Shown here in pieces: positions 4,601-42,340 of a stretch of DNA of 64,000 nucleotides. Position 1 is the first letter of the stretch. Each line of letters starts with the position of its first letter. The notes beneath the pieces are model-generated. The model was not told the DNA's origin. It saw only the letters and a program-made list of their open reading frames with translations, and did no database searches. The position numbers and the translations under genes were made by a program. Source of the stretch: Natribaculum luteum (GTDB taxonomy: Archaea > Halobacteriota > Halobacteria > Halobacteriales > Natrialbaceae); NCBI RefSeq assembly GCF_023008545.1, contig NZ_CP095398.1, positions 310,001 through 374,000 of the forward strand, read 5' to 3'.

Positions 4601-6219
4601 TCGAGGGACCGGCTGCCATGCGAGCGGCGGCGGAACTGACGACCGTAGACCCCTCTTCCGCCGAGCGGATCGTCGATGCACTTCCACCGCTCGCGTCGAC
4701 AGATCCAATCGGGCGGTGGTACGCCGCGCGTACCATGGAAAGGGCTGCACTCGCCAGCGATGACGCCGGGGCGATGATCGCTGCCCCGCCCCTCAAGTTC
4801 GTTACCTCTCCGCCGGAGGAGGGTTTTCCGATTGCCGTGCTTCGGGCGATCGAGGCGCTTCCTGGTTCTGCGATCGTCGACGTCGAGGGCGGCCCGGAGA
4901 TCCTCGTCTCGATCGTAAACGGCACGGTCCCCCCAGCGGACATCACCGTGCAGTCGGACCGGTATCGCGCAGGGGCTGCTGACCGCCTCTTCGCCGCCGC
5001 CCGTGCGGATCCGACCGCTGTCGGGCGTGCTATCGGTGACCTCGATACAGTGGCCGATAGTGCGCACGATTCCGACACGACGCGGGCGCTCGTCTTCGCC
5101 ACCGAAGCGGTCGCCCGGGAGCGTCCCGGTGCGATTACCGACTTCGCTGACGATCTGATCGACCTCGCGACGGGGACCGACCTCTACGAGCCGGGGAAGC
5201 AGGCAATCGCCCGCACGATCGCGTGGATCGGTCACGACGAGTTTTCCGAGTTCGTCTCGTCTTACAAGGAGGGCGATCCGATCGCACCGCTCGATCCCGT
5301 GCCGACGGCGGCGTATCTGTGTTCGACCGACTGCGAGACGCGCCGCGAGGTCGCCGACCTCGCCGCCGACGTCCTGCCGGACGACCTCCTCGTCTCGGTC
5401 GTCGATCGGTTGCTGGCGAGTTCGACCGCCGGTAACGAACGCCAGCGAGCGATCGCTCTCGATGCCCTCGTCCGGGTGGGAGCAGGACTCTCGGCGGGCG
5501 CCAACCGCGACCGGGTGGGAAGCGCGATCCTCGACGCACTCGACGGCGGATGGGACCTCCGGAGTACGGCCGTCTCTCTGCTCCCTACCGCCGGCCATCA
5601 TGATCTCCTGTCGTCGGCGATGGCAGCGTCAGCCGCCATCGGATGTCTCAGTGACGAACGTCCCACGGTTCGGGCCAGGGCGGCGGACGCCCTCGCCGAA
5701 CTCGTCGAAACGGACGCCGTCGACGCTATGGAGGTGACCTCCGAGGTCGTCGATCGCTCTCGGCGCGGCGATCGCTCCGCGAGATGCGGTGTCGCACTGG
5801 CGCTCGGAAAGATCGCCCAGATCGACGTGAGCGTCCAGTCGGTCGCCGTCGATCAGTTCTGTGATCTCGTCGCAGCCGACGACGACCTTCCGCGCCGTCG
5901 GGCGATGGAGGCGCTCGCGGACGTGGCGGAAGTCGGCAGAGGTCGGATTCGGGGTCGAGCTCGAGCAGTCTTCCGCGACGGTCTCGACGACCCAGACCCG
6001 GAGACCACCACGGCGGCAATCCGCGGACTCGGCCACGTCGGCGACCGCTCGGATCTCCAGCGGCTGACCCGACTCTCGAAGCCACCCTCTGGCGCAGGTC
6101 GGGACGCTCTCGACGCGGCCACGGCGCGGCTCCGTGCCAGGATCGGGCGCGAACGCGCCGTGCTTCTCTCGAACGCGCTGTCGCTCGCGTCCACTGATCC
6201 GGTCGACGGCGACGGGTAA
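1609..6219 (+). CDS. large HEAT-repeat protein (1536 aa)
   Basis: A 1536-aa protein made almost entirely of paired amphipathic helices rich in Ala, Asp, Val and Arg, the pattern of HEAT/ARM solenoids (for example VRETAVRCLIDLGCC and VRARAADALAELVETDAVDA). The clearest repeats are in the last 250 residues. No catalytic motif, signal peptide or membrane segment is visible. GTG at 1609 is the first start in frame; GTG at 1621 is an alternative. It is followed by the MoxR and vWA genes on the same strand, so it may act as the scaffold or substrate receptor for that ATPase. It lacks the regular tryptophan-marked repeat of the two giant HEAT proteins and so forms a separate subfamily. Confidence 0.85.
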   Translation: MVSLVIDDDPTTDHQPSIDLRTLEQLRLDLQAGRRDPEDVLDRLSSHVGSGERYVGPRAVSVLLEAAHRRPALADDVVDAIDGFPFSMVHSLYAHSAFQIARLPVGTTLQFVDQLPPHLKLTDSGTWATMAIGRKTPAMFLSRFGSNVFPVDEHLGLVNRLLHAEPAVVRRAITDRLFAIDQSGGTATPPRTADLSTGEEDDESGLSELLSEGREPSPVHEAASDLGQIGLSNPDAIPSFEPHELFDPTDVESMSAEAIDAVADYFGVRLAGRDGRLDPVGLPAGERDATRDAASTVLEAYLTLQSREGCNWRSPLARSLVWGIHRIAHARPNVFADRLDALVVPGIADQFWPVKRVLGTIACCWRHCPESRLEGYVLPLSQLSADRHERRRLALVALASGGAAVVDWFGVEALIERLDDEDEDVRETAVRCLIDLGCCHPGCRPAIVAALSDAFAAADPEFAAVVADWLATAARFWPRQAPRAVSTLRQALSERLDRGEPAVDALCSLVDSYPDLAPEIGDDIVGALGADRVDDQEVYRWIASTARQQPAVVLDRADEMIDAAIDSASNGASEAAWAVFWIAVADPDSVEGRVDELESILADPGTDSVRSIPLAGAIAAVDPTSARASDALDLLTRLLSRSPEDACTVLAELAPATDRAAAPVVEYAIAASRARSHSDPLEERHREPDTAPDETVPDLGPAVADAAVAAGTAHPAYALPLALALEDWLRHPDTADRVRATRIASGLVTEWPHAGPILESALIGLLDHADPELVLAAIPGLAATDTPSTREALRELTGHPHQSIRAAASSALADPTDSHWMPEGAPVDPSPAVIDTAAAGLATDPSAAIDRVQTSAEAAPALRSRAICHLLLCLAASERSAEADRTIAAVRSLTAHADDDTRTESPADRSHQLDRLIGALLDHQAPLVRAQAASLAEAVGSDLGGASMAVRSGLVDGLSDPAPFVRARSADAVGAVAATLSVSESAATDALVKSADGLEGPAAMRAAAELTTVDPSSAERIVDALPPLASTDPIGRWYAARTMERAALASDDAGAMIAAPPLKFVTSPPEEGFPIAVLRAIEALPGSAIVDVEGGPEILVSIVNGTVPPADITVQSDRYRAGAADRLFAAARADPTAVGRAIGDLDTVADSAHDSDTTRALVFATEAVARERPGAITDFADDLIDLATGTDLYEPGKQAIARTIAWIGHDEFSEFVSSYKEGDPIAPLDPVPTAAYLCSTDCETRREVADLAADVLPDDLLVSVVDRLLASSTAGNERQRAIALDALVRVGAGLSAGANRDRVGSAILDALDGGWDLRSTAVSLLPTAGHHDLLSSAMAASAAIGCLSDERPTVRARAADALAELVETDAVDAMEVTSEVVDRSRRGDRSARCGVALALGKIAQIDVSVQSVAVDQFCDLVAADDDLPRRRAMEALADVAEVGRGRIRGRARAVFRDGLDDPDPETTTAAIRGLGHVGDRSDLQRLTRLSKPPSGAGRDALDAATARLRARIGRERAVLLSNALSLASTDPVDGDG

Positions 6220-6727: not shown

Positions 6728-7867
6728 GTGACACGGGACCACGAGCTGCTCGCCGCTGCCGTTAGCGAGTACATCGGCGACCAGAACGGGAGCGTGAGCG
6801 ATGCGACGATCGTCGACGACATTACCCGGAGCCTCCAGAACGTGGACCGCGAGACCGTCGCGCAGTGCGTCTCGCTGCTCCGCACTTCGGACGGCGGTGT
6901 CGCCGACACGGAGATGGCTGGTGGTTCGACGATCGACGCTGGAGCAGCCGGCGACAGTGCGCGTAACGTGATGACCGTCGGCGATGCGACCGGCGAAACC
7001 CTCGGGGCACTGCCCGTCCTGGAGGACGTGGGCCACGATCAGGTCCCCGAAGTCCTCGAGGATGCCTACCACGAACGGGAGACGATGGCTGGCAAGACCG
7101 ACGTTGAGATCGTCACACGAGCCCTGGCCGAAGGGATGAACGTACTGCTGAAGGGCCCGCCGGGCGTCGGCAAGAGCTTCCTCGCGAAGTACGTCTGTTC
7201 GCGGACGAACCGCCCGCTGTACCGGATCACCCTCTCGGAGACGACCTACCGCGAGGATCTGCTGGGTCATCTCCAGCTCGTCTCGGCCCCCAGCGGCGAG
7301 AGCGTCACCTCCTGGGTCGACGGACCGCTCACCCGCGCAGCGCGGGTCGGCGGCGTGTTGCTGCTGGACGAGATCAACGCGGCCGACGCCAACACTGCTG
7401 CGGCGCTGAACGCAGTCATGGAGCAGCGGTCCTCGCGGTCGCTGACCGTCGCACAGACCGGTGAGACGATCGAGCCGCACCACGAGTTTCGGGTGATCGC
7501 GACCGCGAACCCTGGGTACCAAGGAACCTACGAACTCAACGACGCATTCGAGGGGCGATTCAAGCACGTCTCGCTCGACTACCTCGAGCCCGCCGTCGAA
7601 GTGACCCTCGTTCTCGAACGCGGCGGTCTCGACCGGTCCTATGAGGACGCGGTCCGCTGTCTCGTGGAGTTTGCCAACCGTCTCCGGACCGCCTACGAGG
7701 ACGGTGAGTTGTCGACGCCGATCACGACCCGGGAGCTGGTGCGGGTCGCGGCGTTCATGCGCGACGACTTCATGCGGCTGGAGGAGGCGACCAGGAACGA
7801 ACTCCTCCCGCGGGTCGACAGTCACGACGAAGCCCTGGTCGACACGCTCATCACCCGGTGTCTGTAG
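6728..7867 (+). CDS. MoxR-family AAA+ ATPase
   Basis: A 379-aa cytosolic AAA+ ATPase of the MoxR group (CbbQ/NirQ/GvpN-like). It shows Walker A GPPGVGKS at 143-150, Walker B LLLDEIN at 211-217, sensor-1 ATAN at 258-261 and an NDAFEGRF arginine-finger segment at 271-278. The first 100 or so residues are an extra N-terminal region (helical, then a linker) not found in minimal MoxR proteins. MoxR ATPases typically work with a vWA partner to remodel or metallate target complexes, and the next gene, three bases after the stop, is such a partner. The GTG start at 6728 gives the acidic N-terminus expected; no good ribosome site is visible. Confidence 0.93.
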   Translation: MTRDHELLAAAVSEYIGDQNGSVSDATIVDDITRSLQNVDRETVAQCVSLLRTSDGGVADTEMAGGSTIDAGAAGDSARNVMTVGDATGETLGALPVLEDVGHDQVPEVLEDAYHERETMAGKTDVEIVTRALAEGMNVLLKGPPGVGKSFLAKYVCSRTNRPLYRITLSETTYREDLLGHLQLVSAPSGESVTSWVDGPLTRAARVGGVLLLDEINAADANTAAALNAVMEQRSSRSLTVAQTGETIEPHHEFRVIATANPGYQGTYELNDAFEGRFKHVSLDYLEPAVEVTLVLERGGLDRSYEDAVRCLVEFANRLRTAYEDGELSTPITTRELVRVAAFMRDDFMRLEEATRNELLPRVDSHDEALVDTLITRCL

Positions 7868-7869
7868 CG

Positions 7870-9687
7870 ATGGAACTGACGCCAGAAACCTCCGATACAG
7901 AGCTCGTCGCCCTCTCCGGTGAGGGGGAAGCGATCGAAGAGACCCGCCGCCGCCTCGAACGGCTGGTGAACGTCCTCGCGAAGCCACGGATTCACGTCGC
8001 GATCGACGAGGACGGCGCCTTCGCGAGGCCGGCTCCTGAGGGACACACTGCAGAGTACGAGATTCACGTCCCCAAGCACCCCCTCGGCGAGCCAGCGACG
8101 GGTGAGCAACGGAGTATCTCTGCTCGGGCGCGGATCGCGATCCTTTTTCACGAGCTCGGACACGTCAAGTATTCTGATTTTAGCCGCTTCAAGGAACGAC
8201 AAGCACGACTCTCCGGCCCGTTCCGTGAGCTGTTCCGGACGATCTGCAACTCCGCCGAAGACGTCGCGATCGAACGGCAGATGGCCAGCGAGTTCTCGAT
8301 CGGAGCCGACTTCGCCGTCACGAACGACGCCTTCCGCCGACTCCAGGACGACATGCACCGCCGGTACGTCGAGCTGTTTTTCGATGCCGACGACGAGCCG
8401 CTCACTTACACCGTCTTCGAGGCGCTCACGGTCCTCGTTCAGGATTCGGGGTTCGGTCGACTGGATCGGCAGCCGGCGATCCTCGATACGTCCGTCGACG
8501 CGCGCTGCGTCCACGGCGAGGGACGTGCCGCCCTCCTGGAGGTGCTGCCAGAGGTCCGCTCCATGGTCGAAGACGTCGGATCGATACCCTGTGGAACTCG
8601 CCGCGTCGACCGGGTCTTCGAGTGCTTCGAGCGAATCCGACCGGTGCTTGAGGACCTGCCGCTGGTTCAGTTGAAACGCGTCCAGACACGCGAGCCGCGC
8701 TCTTTCGAGTCTGAGACGCGAGATCTCGGTCCTGCGAAGCGGGCCGATGACCTGGCCGATCCCGACGCGGGCGCCACCGTTAGCGTCACTACTGCCGTTC
8801 GGGAGACACCCACCCGCGATCAGTCCTCGTTAGCCGCTATCGACACGCTCGTCGACCGTCTCGGGACGAGTGACGACGATCGGCAGCCACCGATCGAACG
8901 CGAGGCGCGTGCGCTCTTGAGGACCGTTCGATGCGACGAAACACCCGTCGAGGCCGTCGACGTCTGCGAGCCAGATCCAGGGGGACAGCCACCCCAGCGA
9001 TGGTTCAGTGCGCGCGAGGCGGCTCGAGCTCTCGAATCCGATCTCCGGGCGCAGCTTCGCCGTCTCCGACGCGTCTCGCCCGACCCTGGCCATCGGATCG
9101 GGGACATCGATCCGCACCGGCTCGTCGCGGCGTCACAAGGCCGATCGCACGTGTTCAGGCGTCGTGCCGACGGCGATGACCGGGATTATTCCTGTCTCAT
9201 CGTGCTCGACCGATCGCGATCGATGTTCGGCGACTCGATCGATGCCGCTGAAGACGCGACGGCCCAGCTCGTCGTCGCGCTCTCCTCGGTCGGCGTCGAC
9301 GTGAGCGTCCTGTCGTTGCTCTCCGAACGGCCGCGGCTCGAACTCCCCCTTGGCGCACAGCCTCGACAGTACGCCCAGTCAATCTTCTCCGGCCGGGCTC
9401 AGGGCGGAACGCCGCTGAGTGAGGCGATCGCGATCGGTCGGGACCGACTGTCCCAGGGAAGTGGGTCGGTGCCGCTGATGATCGTACTGACAGATGGGGT
9501 GCCTAACAACGGCGAGGCATATCAGCGAGAGCTCGACCGCTGTACGTTTCCGGTCTTTGGGATTTACGTCACCGACACGATCAAGGAACACGCCGCCTGG
9601 TTCGACCGGATCCTCTATGCCGAGCCATCGTCGGTCGACAGAACGCTGCGGGACCTCGCCCGACGATTGTTCCGGAAGCCTTCCTGA
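7870..9687 (+). CDS. vWA-domain protein with HELGH metallopeptidase-like N-terminal domain
   Basis: A 605-aa partner of the MoxR ATPase. The N-terminal half has a zinc-metallopeptidase signature HELGH at about 94-98, followed by a conserved AEDVAIERQ segment that could give the third metal ligand. This matches the known layout of putative metallopeptidase (DUF2201-like) plus vWA proteins. The C-terminal vWA domain (about 440-600) keeps the MIDAS: DRSRS in the first loop, an AQGGTPLSEA loop and TDGVPNN. I chose ATG 7870, just after the MoxR stop TAG; a GTG at 7858 would overlap that gene. It probably binds the ATPase and presents or processes targets. Whether the HELGH domain is an active protease is not known. 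Confidence 0.9.
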   Translation: MELTPETSDTELVALSGEGEAIEETRRRLERLVNVLAKPRIHVAIDEDGAFARPAPEGHTAEYEIHVPKHPLGEPATGEQRSISARARIAILFHELGHVKYSDFSRFKERQARLSGPFRELFRTICNSAEDVAIERQMASEFSIGADFAVTNDAFRRLQDDMHRRYVELFFDADDEPLTYTVFEALTVLVQDSGFGRLDRQPAILDTSVDARCVHGEGRAALLEVLPEVRSMVEDVGSIPCGTRRVDRVFECFERIRPVLEDLPLVQLKRVQTREPRSFESETRDLGPAKRADDLADPDAGATVSVTTAVRETPTRDQSSLAAIDTLVDRLGTSDDDRQPPIEREARALLRTVRCDETPVEAVDVCEPDPGGQPPQRWFSAREAARALESDLRAQLRRLRRVSPDPGHRIGDIDPHRLVAASQGRSHVFRRRADGDDRDYSCLIVLDRSRSMFGDSIDAAEDATAQLVVALSSVGVDVSVLSLLSERPRLELPLGAQPRQYAQSIFSGRAQGGTPLSEAIAIGRDRLSQGSGSVPLMIVLTDGVPNNGEAYQRELDRCTFPVFGIYVTDTIKEHAAWFDRILYAEPSSVDRTLRDLARRLFRKPS

Positions 9688-9817: not shown

Positions 9818-10204
9818 CTAGTCGTCCTCACGCCAGTTGTGCTCGCACTCGGCACAGGTGAGGAGCTGGGTCCCGCTCTCGTCGGCGCTCCGGAGCTGTG
9901 CGAGCAAGAAGTACGCCTCGTCGTGACCACATTCGGGGCACGTCGCACTCGTCTTCGGCCCGCGGAAGAACCGATCGGTCACGATCGAGAGCTCTCGGCG
10001 GGTCTGCTCGGTCGTTGTACTGAACGTGACTCCGTCCATCTCGCTCGAGGCGTTGCAAGCCTGGCACGTCCACTCGTCACCCGGGACCAAGAGTCCGCCA
10101 CAGTCACAGAAGAACGCCGTGAGTCGCCCGGGACGACCGCGAGCGTCGACGGCGACCGAGTCAGTCGTCCTGTTGCCCTCCATGGTGTCGGTGTTCGACG
10201 ACAT
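9818..10204 (-). CDS. transcription elongation factor TFS paralogue (TFIIS/RpoM-like)
   Basis: A 128-aa two-zinc-ribbon protein. The N-terminal ribbon uses C33/C35 and C47/C50. The C-terminal ribbon uses C89/C92 and C117/C120, with the RSADE segment at 105-109 that in TFS/TFIIS carries the acidic pair entering the RNA-polymerase active site for transcript cleavage. It is slightly longer than usual TFS proteins, with a 25-residue extension. I chose ATG 10204; ATG 10213 is possible. It lies just downstream of the UBL/E2/E1 operon on the same strand but appears to have its own promoter. It may be a housekeeping paralogue or a dedicated factor that links the conjugation system to RNA polymerase. 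Confidence 0.85.
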   Translation of the reverse strand: MSSNTDTMEGNRTTDSVAVDARGRPGRLTAFFCDCGGLLVPGDEWTCQACNASSEMDGVTFSTTTEQTRRELSIVTDRFFRGPKTSATCPECGHDEAYFLLAQLRSADESGTQLLTCAECEHNWREDD

Positions 10205-10262
10205 GTACCTCATTTCGGGATCGCCGTCGGCTGGACGCTGACGTCGTCGGTCGATCGATCTC

Positions 10263-10338: not shown

Positions 10339-12135
10339 TCACCGACGAAGAAGCCGACGGAGTGCGAGCACACCTACGCACCCGAGCGCGAGCGGCCAGC
10401 CGTAGGCCCGGAGCATTGCGACGGTCCAGTCGGCAGTCGTAGGACGGTCGCGCTCGGCCGAACGACCGACCCGACCCTCGCCACGAGTACCGTTCGCGTC
10501 GTCGCCGGCGTCGGAGTTCCAGGACGCAGTGGCAGACTCCATGCTGTGCCAGCCACCCGTGACCGGAGACGACTGTTCAACGTGGCGGTCGCCGTCGTCG
10601 CCGGCGATGGACTCGACCCCGTCTCCGGCGTCCTCGCGGACCGAATCGCCCACGATTTCCGTCGGTTCGACAGGCTCGTCGGCCTCGAAGCCTCGGAGTT
10701 CCTCGACGTCCACGTCGAGGCCTATCGATTCTACCTCGGCAATGATCTCCTCGTCGAGTCTCTGGACACCTTCGCCGAGACAGCCGTCGGCACCGCAGGT
10801 GATGCAGTCGTCGGAGGGGTGGGTGCCGACCGAGACCAGTTCGTTGGAGACACCGTCGAGGCGGACGTAATCCGCGGGCTCCTCGTACCCGGTGACGAGC
10901 TTGGTCATCATCCGGACCGCGGTGGTGGCCGCGAGGGCGTTCAGCGGCGTAATCGCAGGTTCAGGGGCGGTGACGTCCTCGTCGAGGTATCCCCGTTCGA
11001 CGTCGGCCTGGATCTCCGCTTCGTCCATCGACTCGAGTCGCAAGCGATCGGGATCGGTCCGCCCGAGACAGTCGAGACAGCCGGTTACGCCGGGTGCCAC
11101 CAGCTGGATGAGCCCCCGTTCCTCGGTGATCTCGCCCTCGTCGCCGGTCTTGATCGCCACGCCGGCGTCGACGTAGTAGCGCAGGTGGCGGACCGCCAAC
11201 TCGCTGCAGTAGAGGCGGGCGGTCAGCCGGTCGACGGCACCGATCAGGACGTCACACTCGGCGAGCGTGTCTTCGGGGACGTCCTGCACGCGTGCTTCGT
11301 AGGCATCGACGGTCGCCTTCGGGTTCGCTCGGACGGCGTGTTCGCCGACGACGTCGACCTTCGCTCGTCCGACGTCATCTTCCGTCGCGCCGTAGATCCG
11401 CGGGAGATTCGACCGCTCGACGTGGTCGGGGTCGACGAACAGGAAGTCCTCGACGCCGATGCGGGCCAGTTGCGTCGCGACGATGGAGCCGAGGCCGCCG
11501 AGGCCGACGACGCCGACGGTCGTTCCGGCGAGTCGTCGCTGGCCATCCGCGGTCAGTGCCCGGATCGACCGATCGTACCGCTGGTCGTCGACGGACACCG
11601 CCGTCGCCGGGCTGGGGGTCTCCAGGGGCGCGTCGAGCGCCCAGTCGCCGACGACCTCGACCGGGAGCCTGCTCCGCCGCTCGGACTCGGGGTCGACGTA
11701 GACGGCGGTGTCTATCCCCTCGTGCCCGACGACTCCAAAGCACAGCGGCGTCTCCGGGTACAGCGGTCCCAACCAGTCGCGGTACGACTCCATGATGTCG
11801 TCGTCGAGGCCGCTGAACGTCGGGTGGTCGCTGAACGGGTGACTGTGCAGCATGATCGGAACCAGTCCCGATTCCAGCGCCGACCCCATCCGCTCGCGTT
11901 CGACCGACAGTTTCGGCCGAACGGCAGTCGCCTCCTGGACCTCGCACTCTGCGCCCGAGACGGGGTCGATCGTCGTCGCCAGCAGACGGCCGTTCGAGGG
12001 CTCGCAGTAGACGTACGCGAACCGCTCGATACCGTCCTCCTGGAGGAGCCACTCCTGGAGCTCCTGGACCTGTGTGGCCGTGAGAACGAGCGTGTACTCG
12101 TCGGTCACTGTCTCGCGGTGACGTTGTTCCGTCAT
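10339..12135 (-). CDS. JAB/JAMM isopeptidase-E1 activating enzyme fusion, membrane-anchored
   Basis: A 598-aa fusion. Residues 12-150 form a JAB/MPN domain with E37 and a JAMM motif H97-S-H99-P, S108, D111 (one residue longer than the usual spacing), expected to cleave UBL precursors or conjugates. Residues about 185-440 are a ThiF/MoeB/E1 domain with the nucleotide loop GLGGLGS (211-217), the NLPR/D-x-G-x-AK segment that activates the C-terminal carboxylate, and zinc-type pairs C353/C356 and C444/C447. An acidic linker (460-570) leads to a C-terminal hydrophobic helix and RRLLRR, suggesting a tail anchor. It starts one base after the E2 stop, so it is co-translated with the E2 and UBL genes. 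Canonical haloarchaeal UbaA lacks this JAB fusion and tail. Confidence 0.9.
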   Translation of the reverse strand: MTEQRHRETVTDEYTLVLTATQVQELQEWLLQEDGIERFAYVYCEPSNGRLLATTIDPVSGAECEVQEATAVRPKLSVERERMGSALESGLVPIMLHSHPFSDHPTFSGLDDDIMESYRDWLGPLYPETPLCFGVVGHEGIDTAVYVDPESERRSRLPVEVVGDWALDAPLETPSPATAVSVDDQRYDRSIRALTADGQRRLAGTTVGVVGLGGLGSIVATQLARIGVEDFLFVDPDHVERSNLPRIYGATEDDVGRAKVDVVGEHAVRANPKATVDAYEARVQDVPEDTLAECDVLIGAVDRLTARLYCSELAVRHLRYYVDAGVAIKTGDEGEITEERGLIQLVAPGVTGCLDCLGRTDPDRLRLESMDEAEIQADVERGYLDEDVTAPEPAITPLNALAATTAVRMMTKLVTGYEEPADYVRLDGVSNELVSVGTHPSDDCITCGADGCLGEGVQRLDEEIIAEVESIGLDVDVEELRGFEADEPVEPTEIVGDSVREDAGDGVESIAGDDGDRHVEQSSPVTGGWHSMESATASWNSDAGDDANGTRGEGRVGRSAERDRPTTADWTVAMLRAYGWPLALGCVGVLALRRLLRR

Positions 12136-12136
12136 C

Positions 12137-12553
12137 TCAGGCCTCCATCAGTGGATTGTCGGAGTGGGGATCCTCGAGGGACACTTCCAGGATGCGAAAC
12201 ATCGTCACCAGGTCGTGCTCCTGCGGATCCCAGTCTGTGATCGTGTGGATACAGTACTTGATGTAGCCGGGTGGCGCCGAAGATCGGGCGTACAGCACAT
12301 GTGGGCTCGATCCCTCGTATCGGACGTCACCGCTGATGTAGACGGTCGGCTGGGTCCGGGGATACGAGTCGTCCAGGTCGAACATCACGTCGGCGTGCCG
12401 GGTTCCGTGTTCGTTCTCCCAGCCCTCCGGCAGGGTCAGGCGCTCGATGGTAACGACGCCCTTGGTGAGGTCGTAGTCCATCCTGGCGCTCTGTCGGCGT
12501 CCGATCTCCTGCTTGAGTTCCTCGATCTCGACGATCACCTCGGCGACGTTCAT
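12137..12553 (-). CDS. E2-like ubiquitin-conjugating protein (with candidate catalytic Cys)
   Basis: A 138-aa protein that follows the UBC-fold plan. An N-terminal helix (1-22) is followed by beta strands ending in DDSYPRTQPTVYI (61-73, matching the YP-x-x-P-x-v element of E2s), a candidate active cysteine C101 in YIKYCIH, then W108-D-P and a C-terminal helix FRILEVSLEDPHSDNPL. The W-x-P, S-L-x-x-P, D-N/D-P-L order is that of eukaryotic E2s. The start overlaps the UBL stop as ATGA and the E1/JAB gene follows after one base, so it should accept UBL from that E1. E2 proteins are not part of the known haloarchaeal SAMP system. Cysteine function is inferred from position only. Confidence 0.85.
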   Translation of the reverse strand: MNVAEVIVEIEELKQEIGRRQSARMDYDLTKGVVTIERLTLPEGWENEHGTRHADVMFDLDDSYPRTQPTVYISGDVRYEGSSPHVLYARSSAPPGYIKYCIHTITDWDPQEHDLVTMFRILEVSLEDPHSDNPLMEA

Positions 12554-12921
12554 CGGCGTCCAAACACCTCCGATTCGGCCAACGGTTGGACGTGAAGTTC
12601 TGTTTCCGGGGGGACTCGATCGGTGACGACATCATCGTCGTTGAGCGCATCGATCCCCTCCCCGTCTTCGTCTCGGAAGGTCAGTACCGCCGCGTCGCTG
12701 ATGTCGTGGTCGCGCTTGAGCGCGCTGGCAGCCGTCCCCTCCGGAACGAGGATTTCCTCGCCTTCCAGCCGGTAGGATACCAGTTCCGTGGTGTCTCGGT
12801 TCTCGTCCGCGGAGGCGTTTCGGCCGTCAGTGCCGGAGCTTCCGGAGGGCCTCGCGTCGGACTCTTCGGGCCGCTGTGCGTTCCCGATCGCTCTCGAGTT
12901 CGTGGTCGTGTCGTCGGTCAT
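12550..12921 (-). CDS. ubiquitin-like beta-grasp modifier with disordered N-terminus (UBL-1)
   Basis: A 123-aa protein: an acidic, Ser/Thr-rich, probably disordered segment (1-50), then a beta-grasp domain of about 72 residues aligned to the other UBL of this operon (RLEG-E/Q-EI, AVLTF/YR, LND-DVV-D-V, QPLA-E/D-S-VFG). It ends VFGRR. A glycine two residues from the end could become the C-terminus after removal of RR, as JAMM or other proteases do for modifier precursors. ATG 12921 is chosen; ATG 12948 is also possible. Its stop overlaps the E2 start (ATGA), which marks UBL-1 and the active-type E2 as one translational unit. Confidence 0.85.
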   Translation of the reverse strand: MTDDTTTNSRAIGNAQRPEESDARPSGSSGTDGRNASADENRDTTELVSYRLEGEEILVPEGTAASALKRDHDISDAAVLTFRDEDGEGIDALNDDDVVTDRVPPETELHVQPLAESEVFGRR

Positions 12922-12964
12922 GATCGTAGTATCTCGAACTCCCGGCACGCAGGCCGGGTGGTCG

Positions 12965-13399
12965 TTACCTGTTCTCTGCGTCGCTCGTCGCGTCTGCCCC
13001 TCCGCAGGCGCGGAGCCGACGCTCTAGCGCCTCTACCACGGTCGTCAGGTCGTCCGTCTCCGGATCCCACTCCGCCTCCGTGGCGAAGACGTCGACCAGC
13101 GCCCAGCGACCGCCCCCGTCGAACCGTTCCGGGGCCATCACCGGCGGGCGGTTTCCGCGGAACTGCATCGCCTCGGTGACGTAGATCTGGGGGCGGTACT
13201 GGGGGTATTCCTCGGGCAGGTCCAGCAGGATGGCGCCGCGACGGCTGCCGTCGTGGGTTTCCCAGCCCGGCGGGAACTCCAGCCCGTCGATCCGGATCAC
13301 GCCACGGTTCTTCAAATCGTGGCTGACCCGGACCTGCCCGCGCTCGGCCAGCGTCTCTCGAAGTTCCTGGAGTTCACTCACCGTCCGCTCGACGTTCAT
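12965..13399 (-). CDS. E2-like protein lacking the catalytic cysteine (UEV-like)
   Basis: A 144-aa paralogue of the neighbouring E2. Both start MNV, both carry the aligned EEYPQYRPQIYV element (63-74) and a W-D-P-E/Q-x-x-D-L segment (W111). At the position of the other E2's C101 there is valine/aspartate (GRWALVDVF), and the only cysteine is C132 near the C-terminus, after the E2 core. This resembles ubiquitin E2 variants such as Mms2, which pair with an active E2. It overlaps the stop of UBL-2 by ATGA, repeating the UBL-E2 arrangement downstream. It may form a heterodimer with the active E2, bind UBL non-covalently, or be a decayed copy; conserved length argues against decay. Confidence 0.85.
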   Translation of the reverse strand: MNVERTVSELQELRETLAERGQVRVSHDLKNRGVIRIDGLEFPPGWETHDGSRRGAILLDLPEEYPQYRPQIYVTEAMQFRGNRPPVMAPERFDGGGRWALVDVFATEAEWDPETDDLTTVVEALERRLRACGGADATSDAENR

Positions 13400-13626
13400 T
13401 TCGTGCCGAACACCCCGGAGTCGGCCAGGGGCTGTGCCTGAATCTCCTGGCCGTCGTCGACGTGGTCGGCAACCACGTCGCCGTCGTTGAGTGATTCGAT
13501 GCCGTCGTCGGTGCGGTAGGTGAGGACTGCGTCCTCATCGACGTTCGCTTCGGCCTTGAGTTCGGCCGCGGTCATGTTGCTCTCGATCGGAATCTCTTGT
13601 CCTTCGAGTCGAACGGTCTGTCCCAT
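13396..13626 (-). CDS. ubiquitin-like beta-grasp modifier (UBL-2)
   Basis: A 76-aa single-domain beta-grasp protein, the size of ubiquitin. It begins MGQTVRLEGQEIPIESN and has AVLTYRTDDG, SLNDGDVVADHV and a C-terminal LADSGVFGTK. It aligns through its whole length with the domain of UBL-1. The final VFG-TK would give a C-terminal glycine after removal of two residues. The ATG at 13626 starts exactly at the domain edge; upstream codons in frame have a different, Arg/Ser-rich composition. It is the first gene of the UBL-E2v-UBL-E2-E1/JAB operon, with an ATGA overlap to the E2v gene. Confidence 0.85.
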   Translation of the reverse strand: MGQTVRLEGQEIPIESNMTAAELKAEANVDEDAVLTYRTDDGIESLNDGDVVADHVDDGQEIQAQPLADSGVFGTK

Positions 13627-14068
13627 GTGTAGCGTGTGTGATCTCTCGTGTCTCGTGGTCGGTTGCGTGCCGATGCACCGCCGTTGGTCGTCGCGTACGA
13701 GCGGTCGCCGCCGCCCGGTAGGCGGCGTCGCCACTCGCTCAGTATGTCTTCCTGCCCCTTCGAAATTGCTCGACTCGAAGGCTGAGTCGCAGATACTGCT
13801 CGATGCGCGTCTGTATTGCCTGCTAAGGACGACGATCGACGGGGCCGGACGTGTTGGCTCTTCTCTCGGGTGAGTCGACCGGTCGGTACGACTCGCGACT
13901 GACTGTTTCACCGAGACCGAGTCTGGTCGACCTATCGCGACCACGGTCTCCCCATAATGGCCAGCGTCGATTGCAGTCTGATGAACGCTTAAGGGATTCC
14001 TCTCCGTGGTCCGAATCGTCTTCGGTGGGATAGTCGAGCATGACAGCCGCCGGGGGGGATATTTGAAC
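13627..14068. promoter_or_regulatory. divergent control region between UBL operon and giant HEAT gene
   Basis: About 440 bp drive two divergent units. On the plus strand, CGCTTAAGGG at about 13986-13995 is a TATA-like element that would give a short leader before GTG 14069, and GGGGGGGA at about 14052-14059 is a strong ribosome site. On the minus strand, AT-poor sequence contains a GC-rich hairpin (GCCGCCGCCCGGTAGGCGGCG, near 13708-13729) that would sit in the 5' leader of the UBL operon. The minus-strand TATA box is not clear. Confidence 0.4.
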
Positions 14069-17000
14069 GTGAGCTTCGATCCACAACGGGTCGCAACCGT
14101 TCTACGAACGGGGACCGATCGAGAGAAGCACGAGGCACTGCGAACGATCGCGACACAGCCGACTCAACGAGCGCTACCGGTGAACGAAATCGTCACTGTG
14201 CTACAACAGGAGGCGGTGACCGGCAAGACGGAAATCCTCGCCGATTTCAAAGCGATCACGTCCGCAGATCTTCGTGCGGTTGCGCTCGACGCTCTCTCCG
14301 AGATCGCACTGCATCGTCCGGATGCCCTGATCAGAAGCGGTGCGCTCCCCCGCCTCGCAGAAATCCAGAAGCAACTCTCAGCCGAGGAGAAATTCCAAGC
14401 GCTGTCGGTTTTGGGGGCAGTCAGCGATGAGGTACCGCGGGCGACACTCCACCGAGTCTACCTGCCGACGATTAGGCAATACGTGCCTGGGCGGACCGAT
14501 CGAGTTGGACTTCTCGCAACGGAGATTCTCGCTGGCGCCTACGCGTGTTATCCCAACGACAAGCGGGTCGGCCACCTACTCCGCCAGGCACGTTACCACG
14601 ATGACGGCGCAGTTCGGATAGTGACGGTCACCGCACTCGGAATGCCGCTGGCAGAGGATCACGTCGGATCACAACCACTGGCGCCGTTTCTGGAGATTGA
14701 TGAGTCCGACGAGGACGTCCTACAGTCGTCGGCCAGTGGGTACGACCCGCCAGAGGTAGGAAGCTTCGACCACGAAGACGCATCGGCGACGTCCACCTCG
14801 AAGGATGGGGAACTCGACGCCGGCCTGATGCAATCGAGCCAGCGTCGAACGGCCGATCGACGTCCTGCGTCCGATTCTGGCTCGCTGGACCATCGAGAGC
14901 GTAACGATTCCTCCGCTGGTGCTCATCATACGCTGCCGCAGGTCGATCCCATACAGGGCGACGAGGGTACACTCCAACTCCGACAGGCGCAGGCGATTGC
15001 TGCAGCTAAGGCGCTCGACGGGGACGATACCGCCTTTCGGATCGGAAAGGAGATCTTAGAGACGCTCCTCTCCAGCGATCGTGTCGTCGTACGCGCCTTG
15101 ATTCCAGTCGCGATCGGGACTGCGTTACCGAACGTCGAGAGTGACCGTGCCACGGACGCTCAGCTCTTGTTGCTCGGCCATCTAGTCGACGACGGCCCAA
15201 CGATCAGATACGAGACGCTCCGAGCCGTCGAATCGTACCTGACTGACGCGACCGAGCGGACCGACCTCCAGCGGGCGCTGCTGACCGGTGACGGGACTGA
15301 TCCGGAGCGACATCTCGGTGTCCTCGTCCGACACGTGATCGAGACGTTCGATGGTTCCGATCGTCGGTCTTACGACCTCGCACTCGGGGTGTACGGTACC
15401 TACGGGGATCGACTGCACAAAGAGAGGGATTCGGCCGAAGAGGCCCTCCAAGAACGGATCGCTGAAACTGCTGTGAGTGAACACGAGGACCACCAACTCC
15501 GGGGCAAGGCGCAGTATCTCCAGCAACATCTGTTCGACGACACATCCTTCGATGCCGAGCGCTCGGATCCTGATCCCCTGTTTCAGCAGTCCGATCCGAC
15601 CGACCAATCGGAATCTGCCTCTTCGGAGAACGGATCAGCTCCCGTCTCGGAAACTGCCCACGCCGGATCGCCCGAGGCGATCCGCTCTGGGTACGAGAGC
15701 GCGACCTCGGTCGACGAGTCCCGTGCACAGGTCGAGGCGGTTGAGGAGTGTTTCGAGGCAGCCGACAACCAGCTCGATCGTGAAGAGGTGCTGGCGCTGT
15801 GGGAGGTCGTTTCGGATGCGACCCATCACGAGTCGCCGGCGGTTCGACGGGCCGTCCCGGGAGCAATCCGGGCGGCGATCGTTAATCATCCTGGTATCGG
15901 CTGGGACACCGCGTCCTATCACATTGACGTAACGATCGACGACGACGCTTCGAGCGTCCGCGCGCAGGCGATGAAGACAATCGCGACATTGCTTCGTGCG
16001 GGCGTGGTGGAGTGGAGCGACCTTGGAATCTATGGCCAGGTCACAGAGGCTCTCCGCGATGACCAGTTGACGGGGGTTGCTCCTGATGCGACGCCAAGTC
16101 GAGCGGACCTCCTTTTCGTCGAGCAAACGCACCACGTGTTGCGCGCGGCGCTATATGAGAGCGACTTGCGATGGTCCGACGTGGTACCTCTTCTGCATCA
16201 GACGTTCCGAAGCAGGATCGACCTTGTTCGTCGGGCAGCGCTTACAGTCGTCCAGAAAGGGCTGCAAGCCGGCGTCGCAGACTGGGACGCAGTCGGGCGT
16301 TTCCTTCGGGAAGCTGCCAGTGACTCGCGGGTTCTCGCGACGGCAGCGATGGAGACAGTTCGAACCGGATTGGTTACCGGCTCCCTCACGTGGACACAGA
16401 TCGAACCCACCGTTCAGGCGACGTTCCAATCCAGCGACACCGATGTCTGTCGTCGCGCGCTCGTGGTCGTTGGCCACGGGCTCCAAGCGGATGCGATCAG
16501 TTGGTCGGCAGCCGAGCCGTTCCTCACGAGCGCACTGGAGAACGAGGAGCAAGAGCTCGCCTTGGAGGCGACTAGAGCGCTTCAGGCGGCCTTTAGACAC
16601 GACAGCGTACGCTGGGAAGATGTCCACGACATTATCTGGCACGGGTTTTGGATCCAGGACGAGGATGTCGCCGAGTCGATTCTCCTGGTCGTCTCCGCCG
16701 CGGTCGAAGCTAGCGTAGCGACATGGGAGGACGTAGCCCCCTTGCTCAATGAGGCGATCGATCGCGCTCCGCCGGTGCTTACGCTCACGACGCTGGATAC
16801 GGTCGAGGCCGGCCTTGGCACCTCGTTTCAGTGGATCGAGGTTGAGCCGGCACTTCGACGTGCTAGGGCCAGCGGGTCTATACGCGTCGTCAGGCGGGTT
16901 CATTCTGTTGCCGCTACTGCACTGGCCGCCGATATCGACGATGCTGCCGTCGTTGCGTTCCTCCGTGAAGGCGTCGAATCCGACGGGGTACCTGGCTCGC

Positions 17001-20000
17001 CCAGTGCAATGGCCGCGATCGCCGACGTCCTCGAGGAGCGCCAGCTCGACTGGGGACTAATCGAACCAGTGCTGTCGGCTGCGATGGACCATTCGGACGA
17101 GCAGACTCGAGAAGGGGCGATCGAAGCTGCGTGTCAGGGATTTACAACTGATGCGATCAGCCGGCAATGGGTGGAGACGACGCTGACGGCCGGGCTCAAC
17201 GACGCCTCGACAGCGGTCGCGCGACGGACTGTCGACGTCCACTGGCTTCTGCTCAACAGTGATCGGTTCCAGTGGGACGATGCCGTAGACCACCTCTCGA
17301 CGGCGCTGGAGCATCCTGACGAGGAAGTCACCACGGCCGCACTGGAGTTGCTCCGGGAGGGGGTCCAGCGGGAACTCTTAGAGTGGGAACAGGTTCAGAA
17401 CCTCGCCTGTTTAGGGTTGAAACGTCCTCCGAACGTAGCCATCGAAGCGATTCGGCTGTTCGGGGTCGCCATCAACCAACAGGAGTCGATCGATATCGGC
17501 TCGTTCCTCGATACCGCTCTCGAGGTCGACGACAACGCGGTCACACACGAGCTGTGTCAGGCACTTACCCTGGGAACGATGACAGGAACGCTGGCCTGGT
17601 CGACTGTCGAACCAGTGCTGCGAGAGGCGATCGCAGTAGACGATCCCCAGATTCACGATCAGGTAGCGCGAGCATCGTTGGTCGGCGTTGGCGAAGAGGG
17701 ATACGACTGGGCGTCGGTAGAGACTGTCGTTCGTACGCTCGTCGAAACCGGAACCGCTCAGACTCAAGTCACCGTCCTTCAGTATCTCGCTGGTCTCGTC
17801 AACCAGGCCACGGTGACCTGGGCTGACCTGAGTGCGACCCTGTGGTGGGTCCTAGAAGAGTGTGACGACGAGGTCGTCACCAACGGCGTCTTCGTGGTCG
17901 GCATACTGCTCAGTCGTGGGCCGCCATACCCAGACGGTTGCGAGGAGTACCTCCGCGAGGCCGTCAATGTTGCCGATGTCGGCGATGCTGTCGTGGAGGT
18001 ACTCCAGACTGAACTCGGTAACCAGACGATTCCACTCTCGATTGCCTGTTCTGTCCTTCGGGTCGTCGTCGCGGACGGCGCTCCGTCAGCGGTTGTCGAC
18101 GGGCTGAAAGCTATCAGAACCGCAGTCGGTGACTACGAGCTGGATTGGCCGGAGATCGAGCGGTTGCTCTGGGACGTTCTCCGTACGGAGCGAGCCGAAC
18201 TGGTGACGGAGGCTGTCGGGATTGTTGTGTCCGGATTGGGTCATGAGCAGCTCGAGTGGGAGCAGGTGGGGGAATTCCTGGAGGCAACCTTCGAATCCGG
18301 CGTCAACGAGGCCGATACGATCGTTCTCAGGGCAATTGAGGCAGGGATCGACACGGAATCGATCCGCTGGGAACGGGTCCACGAGATACTCCGGGATGCG
18401 CTTGGCCATCCCGACGCGAGCGCGCTCGCAGTCACGTTGATAAGGGAAGCGATGCAGACCTATGACCTAGAGTGGTCGAGCGTTGGGACGACGATCAAAG
18501 ACGCACTCGAGGTCCACGATCTAGGCGGGGCGGTCGTCGTCACCCGTATCGGACTCGTCGAGGGAAACTTCACCTGGGACGAGGTCGCTCCAATCATTCG
18601 ACAGGGACTCGTACACGACGACGCCGGGATCGCAAGGGCCGCTGTGGAAGCACTTGGACATGGGCTGGCAGCGCAAGCGATCCCGTGGTCTGCGGGGCAG
18701 CGGCTCCTGATCGAGACCATCGAGACCGGCGAGGCGTCCGTCGCCGCGAAAGCGACGGCCGCCGCCGCGTACGGCGTCAAAGAGCGTGACCTGGCGTGGG
18801 ATGACGTCGAAAGCTGTATCGAGGCCGCACTGGAACGCCCCGAGGACGACGTTGGTAACTCGGTGACCAGCGCAACGAAGCTTCTCACCCTGAAGTACGA
18901 TCCCGAGTGGCACGCTGTCGCCCCGATCGTTCGGGAGTGTCTGCGGCAGCGATCGGCCGATATTGCCCTCGGAGCTGTCGAGACGGTCGGTGCTGGTCTT
19001 CAGGTGGGCACCTTTGAGTGGTATGAAGTTCGACCCCTGCTCCGGGAGGCATTGAACCACGACGAATGCCGCGTCACGAAGGAGGTCACACGAGCTGTCA
19101 TAGTCAGCCTCCGAGATGGACCCCTCGAATGGGACGATGTCGAGCCGATTCTATGGGCGGGTCTCGGCCACCAACACGAACAGACCGCAGTCCGGATGGT
19201 GTACGCTGCCAGCATAGCGATTCGCCACGGGGCGGTCGATTGGGAGAACCTCGAGTCCTTCATAGAGGCGAACGTGGCTCCAGATCAGCCGTCTTCCGTT
19301 CGGAAACGGGCGATCGAGACGATCGCTGTCGGGCTAAGGACGGAGACCTTCCGCTGGGACGAGGTTGTTCCCGTTCTCCGGACAGTTCGGGATGCCGAGA
19401 ACGCGGCGGTCGCCGAAAAAGGCGTCAACGCAGTTCGAAGGACAATCTCGACAGACATGGCGGCCTGGACACAAGTTCGATCATTTCTCGCCGAGACGAT
19501 CAGCAGTACGCCGGGGCGGCCGGCTCACGAAGCCGTCCAGACGATCGGTGCCGCGGTCGAAAGCGGAGCAGTCGAGTGGGATGCGATTGCGGGCCTGCTC
19601 CGGAGCGCCCGAACCCACCCTGATTCTGAAGTTGAACTCGAGACTGTAAAAGTTGTTAACACAGGACTCAGCGAAGGAACGCTGGCGTGGTACGACGTCG
19701 AACCCTTCGTATCTGACGCGCTGAACTCCGAGTACGATCCGGTAGCAATGACCGCTGCCGAAAGCCTCAGATATGCGATCGTCAGCGGCTGGCCCAACAG
19801 GGACGATGCACGGGCATTCCTCGAACGAACGGCTCAAGACGATCGTGCACCCGTTGCTACCGCCGCGATGGGAGTCCTCGAGATTGGTCTTCCTGCAGGT
19901 TACTTTGACGCTACGATCGCGACGACAGTGATCGCGTCGACGGTCGAAGACGGTGCGGAGCCCGCCACGATCGTGGGTCTATCTGCACTCGAACAGGGGC

Positions 20001-22044: not shown

Positions 22045-22125
22045 CAAGAAGAGTTCGTATAAAACGCACGTCGATAGGGGAGTCAGAGACAGCATCCTGT
22101 CCAGAGGATTCGAACGGTCACAGTG

Positions 22126-23034
22126 ATGACCCCAGCCCAGCACACGGAGGAGGCGGGAACGTCCGATCAGGGAGCGGCCTGGAACCCTCGGCAGCGGGTC
22201 GATCCGGCATTCCGCAATACAGTGTGGAACGACATCCTCGGGTCGTCACGGAAACGTGATGTCTTCCTCGCGGTACGGGATCTGGCCTCGGAGCGGTGCT
22301 GTCTAGAGAAAACCGAAATCGCCACGAGGGCTCTTTCATACCCTCATTTCAGCGATCGCGACAAGCTCCGCGGAGGGGATCTCGGGGATAACGGCGACCT
22401 CGAGCCCCTGCGTGACGTCGGGGCCGTCTTGCCGATCCCGAAGATCGCCCGCCCGAGCGTGGATTACGTCGTCCCGTTCCGGGACCTCTGTCAGTACCTC
22501 GTCGACCCATACCACGCACCGACCGCGGAATCCGTTCAACTCGCAATCGAATACTACCGTCGGAACCAGGAACGGGACCACACCAAATCCCGGAGGAAGT
22601 CCGGTACAGTCCGGGACCTCCCGATCGATCCGTTCGCGATCGAACTCTACACCGCCGTCCGACTCGCCCTGCGGCTGGATATCGACGTCGACCGCGTGAC
22701 ATTCACGACGTTCCGGCCGAGCGTGACCGATCACGAGCACGCTCGTGGGTTTGTCATCGAGGGCCAACTCGAGGCCGATTCCGAGGGAGGGTCAGACGAC
22801 GACACCGATCTGATGTCGGAGCTTGAGACTCTGTGTGCGGAGTACGTCGAATACGCCGCCCACGGGAAGGATATCTTCCGGATCGGGGTTTACGCCCGTC
22901 CCGACGACGAGACGGACACCCGAACCGACGCACGTCGGCGGGCAATTCGGGACTTTAGTTCGTTCGAAACGTTCAATCGAGAGCAGCGCAAGTTCCGATT
23001 CAGGTGGTCGCTCGATCCGGTCATCATGCTCTAG
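22126..23034 (+). CDS. winged-helix-like protein, paralogue of 26005-27129
   Basis: A 302-aa protein. The N-terminal 100 residues have a helix-turn-helix-like layout (VFLAVRDLASERCCLEKTEI..., then a strand-like PIPKIA segment). The middle holds QLAIEYYRRNQE, which aligns with QLAIEYIGWEYRP in the protein at 26005-27129. Both have a short LPI/LPL segment followed by a helix next. The C-terminal part is mixed alpha/beta and not recognised. I infer a DNA-binding or partner-binding regulator pair. The stop TAG (23032-23034) directly abuts the stop of the convergent gene, with no spacer. GTG 22123 is an alternative start. Confidence 0.65.
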   Translation: MTPAQHTEEAGTSDQGAAWNPRQRVDPAFRNTVWNDILGSSRKRDVFLAVRDLASERCCLEKTEIATRALSYPHFSDRDKLRGGDLGDNGDLEPLRDVGAVLPIPKIARPSVDYVVPFRDLCQYLVDPYHAPTAESVQLAIEYYRRNQERDHTKSRRKSGTVRDLPIDPFAIELYTAVRLALRLDIDVDRVTFTTFRPSVTDHEHARGFVIEGQLEADSEGGSDDDTDLMSELETLCAEYVEYAAHGKDIFRIGVYARPDDETDTRTDARRRAIRDFSSFETFNREQRKFRFRWSLDPVIML

Positions 23035-27129: not shown

Positions 27130-27243
27130 GCCCTCCCCCCGTACAGGCGAGTGGCCGGTCGCCTTTGTCTCCCATATTGTAAACAATCTCTAGCCGAACT
27201 GTATTAAATACGTGGGTGTGTAGGTCGCACATAGTCGTTGTGA

Positions 27244-30205: not shown

Positions 30206-30224
30206 ACATCAGCGGTAATGTCGC

Positions 30225-30237
30225 CTCGTATAAAATC
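30225..30237 (-). promoter_or_regulatory. TATA box giving a leaderless HEAT-535 transcript
   Basis: Minus-strand GATTTTATACGA is centred about 27 bases upstream of ATG 30205, the distance expected for a leaderless archaeal transcript. Its plus-strand reading (TCGTATAAAATC) is also TATA-like. Confidence 0.55.
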
Positions 30238-30391
30238 GGACGTAGCGGGACCCCCGACGTCGACACACTGCCGATACCGTAGTCCCGCTTCGAACGATCG
30301 GATTGCCCCGTCCAGTATACTTAACAGTCCTATCCCACAACTCCGAACGACGATCGAGGCGGCCAGCGGCCGCCTGCGGGGGTTGGGACGC

Positions 30392-38255: not shown

Positions 38256-38415
38256 CCCCGAAAGACCCGGAAGAGACGAAAGAGAAGGGGATACACTCGA
38301 GAAAAAATAGGATCCGCATGAGAATAAACTGATAACCGATACTACTACTGGTAGTGATGGGAGGACGACCAGATCAATGGCCCAGTCGGTCTGAGCGGCT
38401 GAGTCGTCGCATCCA

Positions 38416-42089: not shown

Positions 42090-42340
42090 CTGAGAGGCAA
42101 CCTCCCGCCCCGAGTTCCTCCAGAATCTTTGAAACGGGACGATACGGATGTCTGCACCCATCCCCGCTCAGAACAAAAACGTTGAGGTTCCGGATCCCTC
42201 CACGGAGACGGATACTGATCCCGGAACTAGCCGGAATCAAGAACTAAGATCCTGTTGCCGGAATCGTTACTGGTGCCGGAGAGAAGGGACATGCAATTCG
42301 TCAATTCACTGCCGATGAACAGTACACTGGAGGGATAATC

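What the first reader, a model, noticed from the sequence alone, without database searches (positions are those of the whole stretch)
10339..13626. Complete UBL-E2-E1/JAB conjugation operon in a haloarchaeon
Five overlapping or near-abutting genes encode two UBLs, two E2-fold proteins and a JAB-E1 fusion. Known haloarchaeal modification (SAMPs, UbaA, HvJAMM) has no E2; within Archaea E2s are known mainly from Caldiarchaeum-type and Asgard lineages. The gene order (UBL-E2v, UBL-E2, E1/JAB) and co-translation overlaps are seen in the sequence; the activity is inferred. Structure prediction of the five proteins and pull-down of conjugates would be decisive.
Basis: partly seen in the sequence, partly recalled or inferred. 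Interest (0 to 1): 0.93.

Follow-up and report, generated by a model that had tools for sequence, protein, structure and literature searches.

The report
Ubiquitin-like conjugation operon in a haloarchaeon
A salt-loving archaeon carries on a large secondary contig a compact five-gene set that looks able to attach small ubiquitin-like tags to proteins and remove them; it is an archaeal cousin of the bacterial 'Bub' systems, but its transfer enzyme has the cysteine used in eukaryotes where the bacterial enzymes have serine, and it has an inactive-looking partner enzyme alongside.

Summary
In detail: five minus-strand genes (UBL1, E2v, UBL2, E2, JAB-E1) at 10339-13626, with ATGA overlaps at both UBL/E2 junctions. 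E2 is predicted to fold as a UBC domain (best match Citrobacter BubB, then eukaryotic E2s) and UBL1 as ubiquitin. JAB-E1 is closest to Citrobacter BubCD. The organism is Natribaculum or a close relative; about 2% of sampled Halobacteria carry this clade (100/100 in the E1 tree). It is a new variant of the known multiubiquitin/Bub operon class. Differences: (1) the active E2 has a cysteine (C101) where bacterial and other haloarchaeal Bub-type E2s have serine; (2) a cysteine-less E2 (E2v) sits beside it; (3) UBLs end in -FG plus 0-7 residues, implying trimming; (4) a hydrophobic E1 tail or a membrane protein accompanies most operons. E1 lacks a crossover-loop cysteine. A linked gene (22123-23034) is nearly restricted to genomes with these modules; in two genomes it sits with a UBL lacking the C-terminal glycine and a Cys-less E2v, with no JAB-E1 found, so UBL1-E2v is probably a separable non-catalytic module. 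Activity and function are untested.

The parts
13396..13626 (-). UBL1, 76 aa, beta-grasp ubiquitin-like protein, C-terminus ...SGVFG|TK; belongs to the separable UBL1-E2v module
   Evidence: AF2 pLDDT 84, order b-b-a-b-b-a-b; matches ubiquitin, VIA Z 9-10, rmsd ~1.6 A; conserved -FG
12965..13399 (-). E2v, 144 aa, E2 paralogue without the catalytic Cys (D at that position here; D or S in orthologues)
   Evidence: Homologous to E2; six-member E2v clade 99/99; weak Prok-E2_E and UEV Pfam hits
12550..12921 (-). UBL2, 123 aa, acidic N-terminal extension plus UBL domain, C-terminus ...SEVFG|RR
   Evidence: Aligned with UBL1 and relatives
12137..12553 (-). E2, 138 aa, UBC fold; predicted active-site Cys101 in the motif YIKYCIHTITDWDP
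   Evidence: AF2 pLDDT 82, pTM 0.81; Foldseek and VIA best hit Citrobacter BubB 9eae_C, Z 12.4, then E2s Z ~11; profile-profile with bacterial Bub E2s prob 96.7, E 3.8e-10
12251..12253 (-). codon of E2 Cys101
   Evidence: Cys in all 12 haloarchaeal active E2s of the clade; Ser in this column in nearly all bacterial and other haloarchaeal Bub-type E2s compared
10339..12135 (-). JAB-E1 fusion, 598 aa, with a long linker and a hydrophobic C-terminal tail
   Evidence: Best PDB hit Citrobacter BubCD 9ea4, E 6.6e-23 over residues 16-408; ThiF E 8.7e-42
11656..12090 (-). JAB/JAMM domain (about aa 16-160): E37, H97, H99, S108, D111
   Evidence: H97, H99 and D111 invariant, E37 and S108 nearly so, in 12 haloarchaeal proteins
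10834..11577 (-). E1/ThiF adenylation domain (aa 187-434) with GxGGxG, D235, N243, R246, K259, D302; Cys pairs C353/C356 and C444/C447 (the second just after this span) follow the zinc-site pattern
   Evidence: Pfam; invariant residues
10342..10413 (-). hydrophobic C-terminal tail of JAB-E1 (possible membrane anchor)
   Evidence: Hydropathy: strong in the Salinigranum orthologue (2.79), moderate here (1.48 over 19 aa, 1.83 over 15); separate hydrophobic proteins follow E1 in several operons of the sister branch
22123..23034 (+). w22, 303 aa, no Pfam match; candidate partner or regulator of the tandem-type operon
   Evidence: In 5 of 391 Halobacteria, including all 3 sampled tandem-operon genomes (hypergeometric P ~1e-6), and in Halolamina; the other two have UBL-E2v next to it

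Best explanation
The locus encodes a ubiquitin-like conjugation and deconjugation pathway, an archaeal Cys-E2 branch of the multiubiquitin/Bub operon class. Proposed steps: (1) the JAB domain trims UBL precursors after -VFG (inferred from the -FG consensus with 0-7 extra residues); (2) the E1 domain adenylates the new C-terminal Gly (adenylation residues are conserved: shown; activity inferred); (3) as E1 lacks a crossover-loop Cys, the UBL passes from the adenylate directly to E2 Cys101 as a thioester (inferred); (4) E2 transfers the UBL to a target amine, possibly near the membrane because E1 has a hydrophobic tail (inferred); (5) JAB removes the tag (inferred). UBL1-E2v is most likely a non-catalytic, UEV-like adaptor module that binds E2~UBL or UBL-tagged targets and couples them to the linked gene w22 and perhaps to the nearby HEAT-repeat, MoxR and vWA proteins (inferred).
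For: JAB-E1 aligns with BubCD over both domains; E2 model resembles BubB and E2s; UBL1 model resembles ubiquitin; catalytic JAMM and E1 residues invariant; C101 conserved in 12/12 active E2s and aligned to the Ser of Bub E2s; -FG end in 15/15 haloarchaeal UBLs and in two bacterial multiubiquitin proteins; gene order conserved in tandem and simple forms; purifying selection; UBL-E2v with w22 but no JAB-E1 in G204 and G215.
Against: No activity, target or expression data. Sequence comparison of the UBLs with bacterial multiubiquitin is weak (hhalign prob 4.7%). The halo-only E2 profile does not reach BubB in the PDB at E <= 1. Only four tandem-type lineages were found, and UBL2 of Halolamina is frameshifted. 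E2v of two orthologues has Ser at the active-site column, so a catalytic E2v is not strictly excluded. The window's hydrophobic tail is short.
Confidence: 0.62

Rival explanations
1. Antiviral defence system: a haloarchaeal counterpart of Bub/Bil that tags viral or host proteins on infection. The enzymology is as in the best explanation; this concerns the purpose and is compatible with it.
For: Patchy distribution (9 of 391 Halobacteria); found on plasmids and on a secondary contig here; homologous HTH proteins divergent in 5 related loci, as bacterial Bub operons are regulator-controlled and were called putative immune pathways (PMC13373217).
Against: [quoted passage not shown] apart from E1 itself no neighbouring gene gave a convincing defence-family match; Methanocella-like loci sit beside a SUI1-like gene in three genomes, which looks housekeeping.
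Confidence: 0.4
2. E2v works as an Mms2-like cofactor: the E2-E2v heterodimer builds UBL chains or sets linkage.
For: Cys-less E2 next to a Cys E2 in the tandem clade, and a second E2/E2v pair in G176 on another branch; fold matches include Mms2/Ubc13 and Tsg101 UEV domains.
Against: E2v with a UBL exists without JAB-E1 or an active E2 in the 19 kb fetched around it in G204 and G215; UBL1 has two Lys, one of them in the predicted trimmed tail, and UBL2 one, so chain sites are few; no complex was modelled.
Confidence: 0.25
3. Sulfur-carrier pathway: UBLs and E1 serve thiocarboxylate chemistry rather than protein conjugation.
For: E1 lacks a crossover-loop Cys and has CxxC pairs, as MoeB/ThiF-type enzymes do.
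Against: A conserved Cys E2 and a fused JAB are not expected in that chemistry; best structural relatives are BubCD and BubB; the genome has its own UbaA-like E1 on the main contig.
Confidence: 0.07
4. Serine (oxyester) Bub-like chemistry as presumed for the bacterial enzymes, with C101 incidental.
For: Same operon class and E1 type.
Against: The Ser column of bacterial E2s is Cys in all 12 haloarchaeal active E2s of this clade.
Confidence: 0.05

Closest known systems
Bub (bacterial ubiquitination-like) operons: multiubiquitin UBL, E2 (BubB), JAB-E1 (BubCD)
   Same: Gene content and order UBL-E2-JAB/E1; JAB-E1 fusion; E1 without crossover-loop Cys; E2 fold; C-terminal Gly, -FG in some
   Different: E2 has Cys instead of Ser at the active-site column; extra UBL-E2v module; hydrophobic E1 tail or separate membrane protein; other regulators
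Prok-E2_E (PF14462) / E2-UBC family proteins
   Same: Weak matches of most clade members; NCBI calls the Salinigranum orthologue E2/UBC
   Different: Window E2 and E2v fall below the Pfam cut-off (17-18 vs 25 bits)
SAMP/UbaA/HvJAMM system of haloarchaea
   Same: Ubiquitin-like modifier, E1 and JAMM protease; UbaA-like E1 and a JAB protein are present separately in this genome
   Different: No E2 known in that system; here E1 and JAB are fused and an E2 is encoded
Caldiarchaeum subterraneum ubiquitin operon
   Same: Archaeal UBL/E1/E2 pathway (PMC5654768)
   Different: No RING E3 found here; E1 is a JAB fusion of Bub type
Eukaryotic UEV proteins (Mms2, Tsg101/Vps23)
   Same: Cys-less UBC fold; halo-only E2 profile best matches Vps23 UEV (E 8e-4)
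   Different: Homology at the level of the UBC superfamily only

Membership tests
Bub / multiubiquitin operon class | JAB-E1 fusion related to BubCD | tested here: met
   E 6.6e-23 to 9ea4 over both domains
Bub / multiubiquitin operon class | UBC-fold E2 related to BubB, adjacent to E1 | tested here: met
   Fold search best hit BubB; profile-profile with bacterial relatives prob 96.7
Bub / multiubiquitin operon class | Multiubiquitin-type UBL (PF14452) | tested here: inconclusive
   4 of 19 aligned UBLs match PF14452, UBL1 not among them; hhalign weak; ubiquitin fold predicted; -FG end shared with L064 and L065
Bub / multiubiquitin operon class | Ser at the E2 active-site column (seen in the bacterial members compared here; not known to be defining) | tested here: not met
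   Cys in all 12 haloarchaeal active E2s of the clade; hence filed as a variant, not as a plain member
Bub / multiubiquitin operon class | Conjugation activity | not testable with these tools
   Needs biochemistry
Canonical E1-E2 thioester cascade (eukaryotes, Caldiarchaeum) | E2 active-site Cys followed by a W-x-P motif | tested here: met
   YIKYCIHTITDWDP; C101 conserved
Canonical E1-E2 thioester cascade (eukaryotes, Caldiarchaeum) | E1 catalytic Cys in the crossover loop | tested here: not met
   No Cys between Y383 and N399 in any of the 16 proteins
JAMM/JAB proteases | E...HxH...SxxD motif | tested here: met
   E37, H97, H99, S108, D111
UEV-type E2 variants | UBC homologue lacking the catalytic Cys | tested here: met
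   E2v clade; E2v itself was not modelled
UEV-type E2 variants | Binds an active E2 or UBL | not tested
   No complex prediction available

The most novel reading that the evidence does not exclude
A prokaryotic pathway in which a JAB-E1 hands an adenylated UBL straight to a Cys E2 at the membrane, while a second UBL and a Cys-less E2 form a non-catalytic reader/adaptor that links the tagging to HEAT-repeat and chaperone or AAA-vWA machinery; the UBL-E2v adaptor also works alone in other haloarchaea.
Probability: 0.28. Interest if true: 0.87.

Novelty: new variant of a known kind. Interest (0 to 1): 0.72.

Why it matters
If the E2 is active, haloarchaea hold a self-contained, plasmid-encodable ubiquitin-like cascade with a eukaryotic-type Cys E2 and a UEV-like partner, in organisms that can be grown and engineered. 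It would give a Cys/Ser pair of otherwise similar pathways for testing how thioester chemistry arose or was lost in ubiquitin evolution, and a free-standing UBL-E2v module that may show what a non-catalytic E2 does on its own.

Tried and rejected
Pfam, NCBIfam and PADLOC on the UBLs gave nothing useful; NCBIfam on 19 E2s gave none. phmmer of the single E2 against the PDB gave only chance hits. The primary Bub and Bil papers are not held, so statements on Bub serine chemistry rest on recollection. The MoxR, vWA and TFS-like genes were considered as parts: MoxR-vWA recurs only near the Halolamina operon, TFS in none of the relatives. Relation of the Methanocella-like Cys E1s to the haloarchaeal ones is unresolved (35/42). 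The first dN/dS for JAB-E1 was invalid because of a 3-aa indel and was redone. Structure prediction was limited to two jobs, so E2v, UBL2 and JAB-E1 were not modelled.
Full report
What is there. Five ORFs lie on the - strand at 10339-13626: UBL1, E2v, UBL2, E2 and JAB-E1. UBL1/E2v and UBL2/E2 share ATGA overlaps; E2 and JAB-E1 are one base apart. The window lies on contig C2 (861,699 bases) of a 4.6 Mb, three-contig genome. A Natribaculum longum plasmid of 760 kb carries the operon at about 99% protein identity, so the window is from Natribaculum or a close relative. The largest contig has a separate UbaA-like E1 and a JAB protein about 2 kb from it, so the SAMP-type system is additional.

Domain identity. 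The 598-aa protein has ThiF at E 8.7e-42 and its best PDB hit is Citrobacter BubCD, over residues 16-408, that is JAB plus E1. In 12 haloarchaeal relatives H97, H99 and D111 of the JAMM motif are invariant and E37 and S108 nearly so; the adenylation residues are invariant. No Cys occurs in the crossover loop in any of 16 proteins compared. E2 (AF2 pLDDT 82, pTM 0.81, four-sequence alignment) matches Citrobacter BubB best (VIA Z 12.4, rmsd 2.7, 117 aligned) and many E2s at Z about 11; Foldseek E-values are weak (best 5e-3). UBL1 matches ubiquitin at Z 9-10 over about 65 residues. E2v was not modelled; its identity rests on homology to E2 (28-34% identity).

Distribution. The JAB-E1 search finds nine genomes of 391 Halobacteria with this clade, the window's included. 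Four loci (window, Halolamina pelagica, G365, G040) have the tandem form UBL-E2v-UBL-E2-JAB/E1; others have UBL-E2-JAB/E1, and G176 has UBL-E2-E2v-JAB/E1. Plasmids of Salinigranum marinum and Natrinema carry the simple form. In the E1 tree the 12 haloarchaeal members form a clade at 100/100, the tandem ones at 99/96 within it. Three genomes of another family in the same phylum, which look like Methanocella (inference; a JAB-E1 fusion was reported for methanogen RC1 in PMC2948915), have a UBL-E2 ORF with a Cys E2 and JAB-E1. Their placement next to the haloarchaeal clade is not supported (35/42).

Relation to Bub. Bacterial relatives on plasmids are annotated multiubiquitin, E2/UBC and ThiF. 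Profile-profile comparison links the haloarchaeal and bacterial E2s (prob 96.7, E 3.8e-10). In one alignment C101 falls in the column of a conserved Ser of bacterial E2s and of other haloarchaeal E2s; for the Bradyrhizobium E2 the aligner put a gap there. From memory, not checked here, the Bub mechanism paper (Ye et al. 2026, cited in PMC13373217, not held) reports serine-based intermediates. UBL C-termini carry FG in all 15 haloarchaeal proteins aligned, with 0-7 residues beyond, and FG also in two bacterial ones; UBL sequence similarity to multiubiquitin is otherwise inconclusive.

E2v and the linked gene. Six E2v proteins form a clade (99/99). E2v lacks the Cys throughout; two orthologues have Ser there and two Asp. 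Gene w22 at 22123-23034 is in 5 of 391 genomes, including all three sampled tandem ones (P about 1e-6). In the other two, G204 and G215, w22 lies divergent to a UBL ending -VFR and an E2v, without JAB-E1 within the 19 kb fetched, and one search listed one weaker E1 match in each genome; the cluster also has HEAT, vWA, GrpE and Hsp70 proteins. So the UBL1-E2v half is separable and there probably cannot conjugate. That G204 and G215 lack any other suitable E1 was judged from the single JAB-E1 search.

Membrane link. Salinigranum E1 ends in a clear hydrophobic segment (2.79); the tandem E1s end in shorter, weaker ones (1.2-1.7 over 19 residues), and separate hydrophobic proteins follow E1 in G335, G364, G295, G143 and Natrinema. 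Membrane attachment is inferred.

Regulation and role. Homologous HTH proteins are divergent to five related operons. Bacterial Bub operons are often associated with DNA-damage-responsive regulators and have not been shown to protect against phage (PMC13373217). Defence is therefore plausible, not shown. The nearby HEAT giants, MoxR and vWA genes in the window recall conflict systems reported with UBL associations (PMC7159879), but only MoxR-vWA recurs, near one relative.

Verdict. New variant of a known kind: a Cys-E2 archaeal branch of the Bub class with an added Cys-less E2/UBL module. Sequence and fold claims are shown or predicted; chemistry and function are inferred.

Noticed in passing
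L138 and L139 (G204, G215): UBL (ends -VFR) and Cys-less E2v beside w22, with HEAT, vWA, GrpE and Hsp70 proteins and no JAB-E1 nearby.
   Followed up: partly
L104-L109: Haloarchaeal ORFs of about 337-382 aa with an acidic helical-looking start and a Ser-type E2 end, next to JAB-E1.
   Followed up: partly
L051-L060: More divergent haloarchaeal E1 proteins of 550-620 aa with small upstream UBL- and E2-like genes; a further group in the E1 tree.
   Followed up: partly
L122-L124: Methanocella-like UBL-E2 ORF with Cys E2, JAB-E1, DUF5788, a CxxC protein and a SUI1-like gene; L124 has a second E2-like ORF with Cys.
   Followed up: partly
window 1609-6219, 14006-21187, 30218-36469: Three giant HEAT-repeat proteins (1536, 2393, 2083 aa) around the operon, with MoxR (6728-7867) and vWA (7858-9687); a second MoxR-vWA pair lies upstream at G000:C2 about 299,600-302,460.
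   Followed up: no
window 9818-10222: TFS-like zinc-ribbon protein downstream of JAB-E1 on the same strand; not conserved with the operon.
   Followed up: partly
window 23035-27186: Three minus-strand genes (w23, w24, w26) with weak homologues near the Halolamina and G040 operons.
   Followed up: partly
L003:9157-9535: UBL2 of Halolamina pelagica is split by a frameshift (draft error or pseudogene).
   Followed up: no
L062:572-9207: The Salinigranum simple-type operon lies beside genes for 7-deazaguanine synthesis and tRNA-guanine transglycosylases.
   Followed up: no
window 36754-44080: M48/M56-type peptidase genes (38416-40056, 42341-44080) near an IS66 transposase (36754-38211).
   Followed up: no
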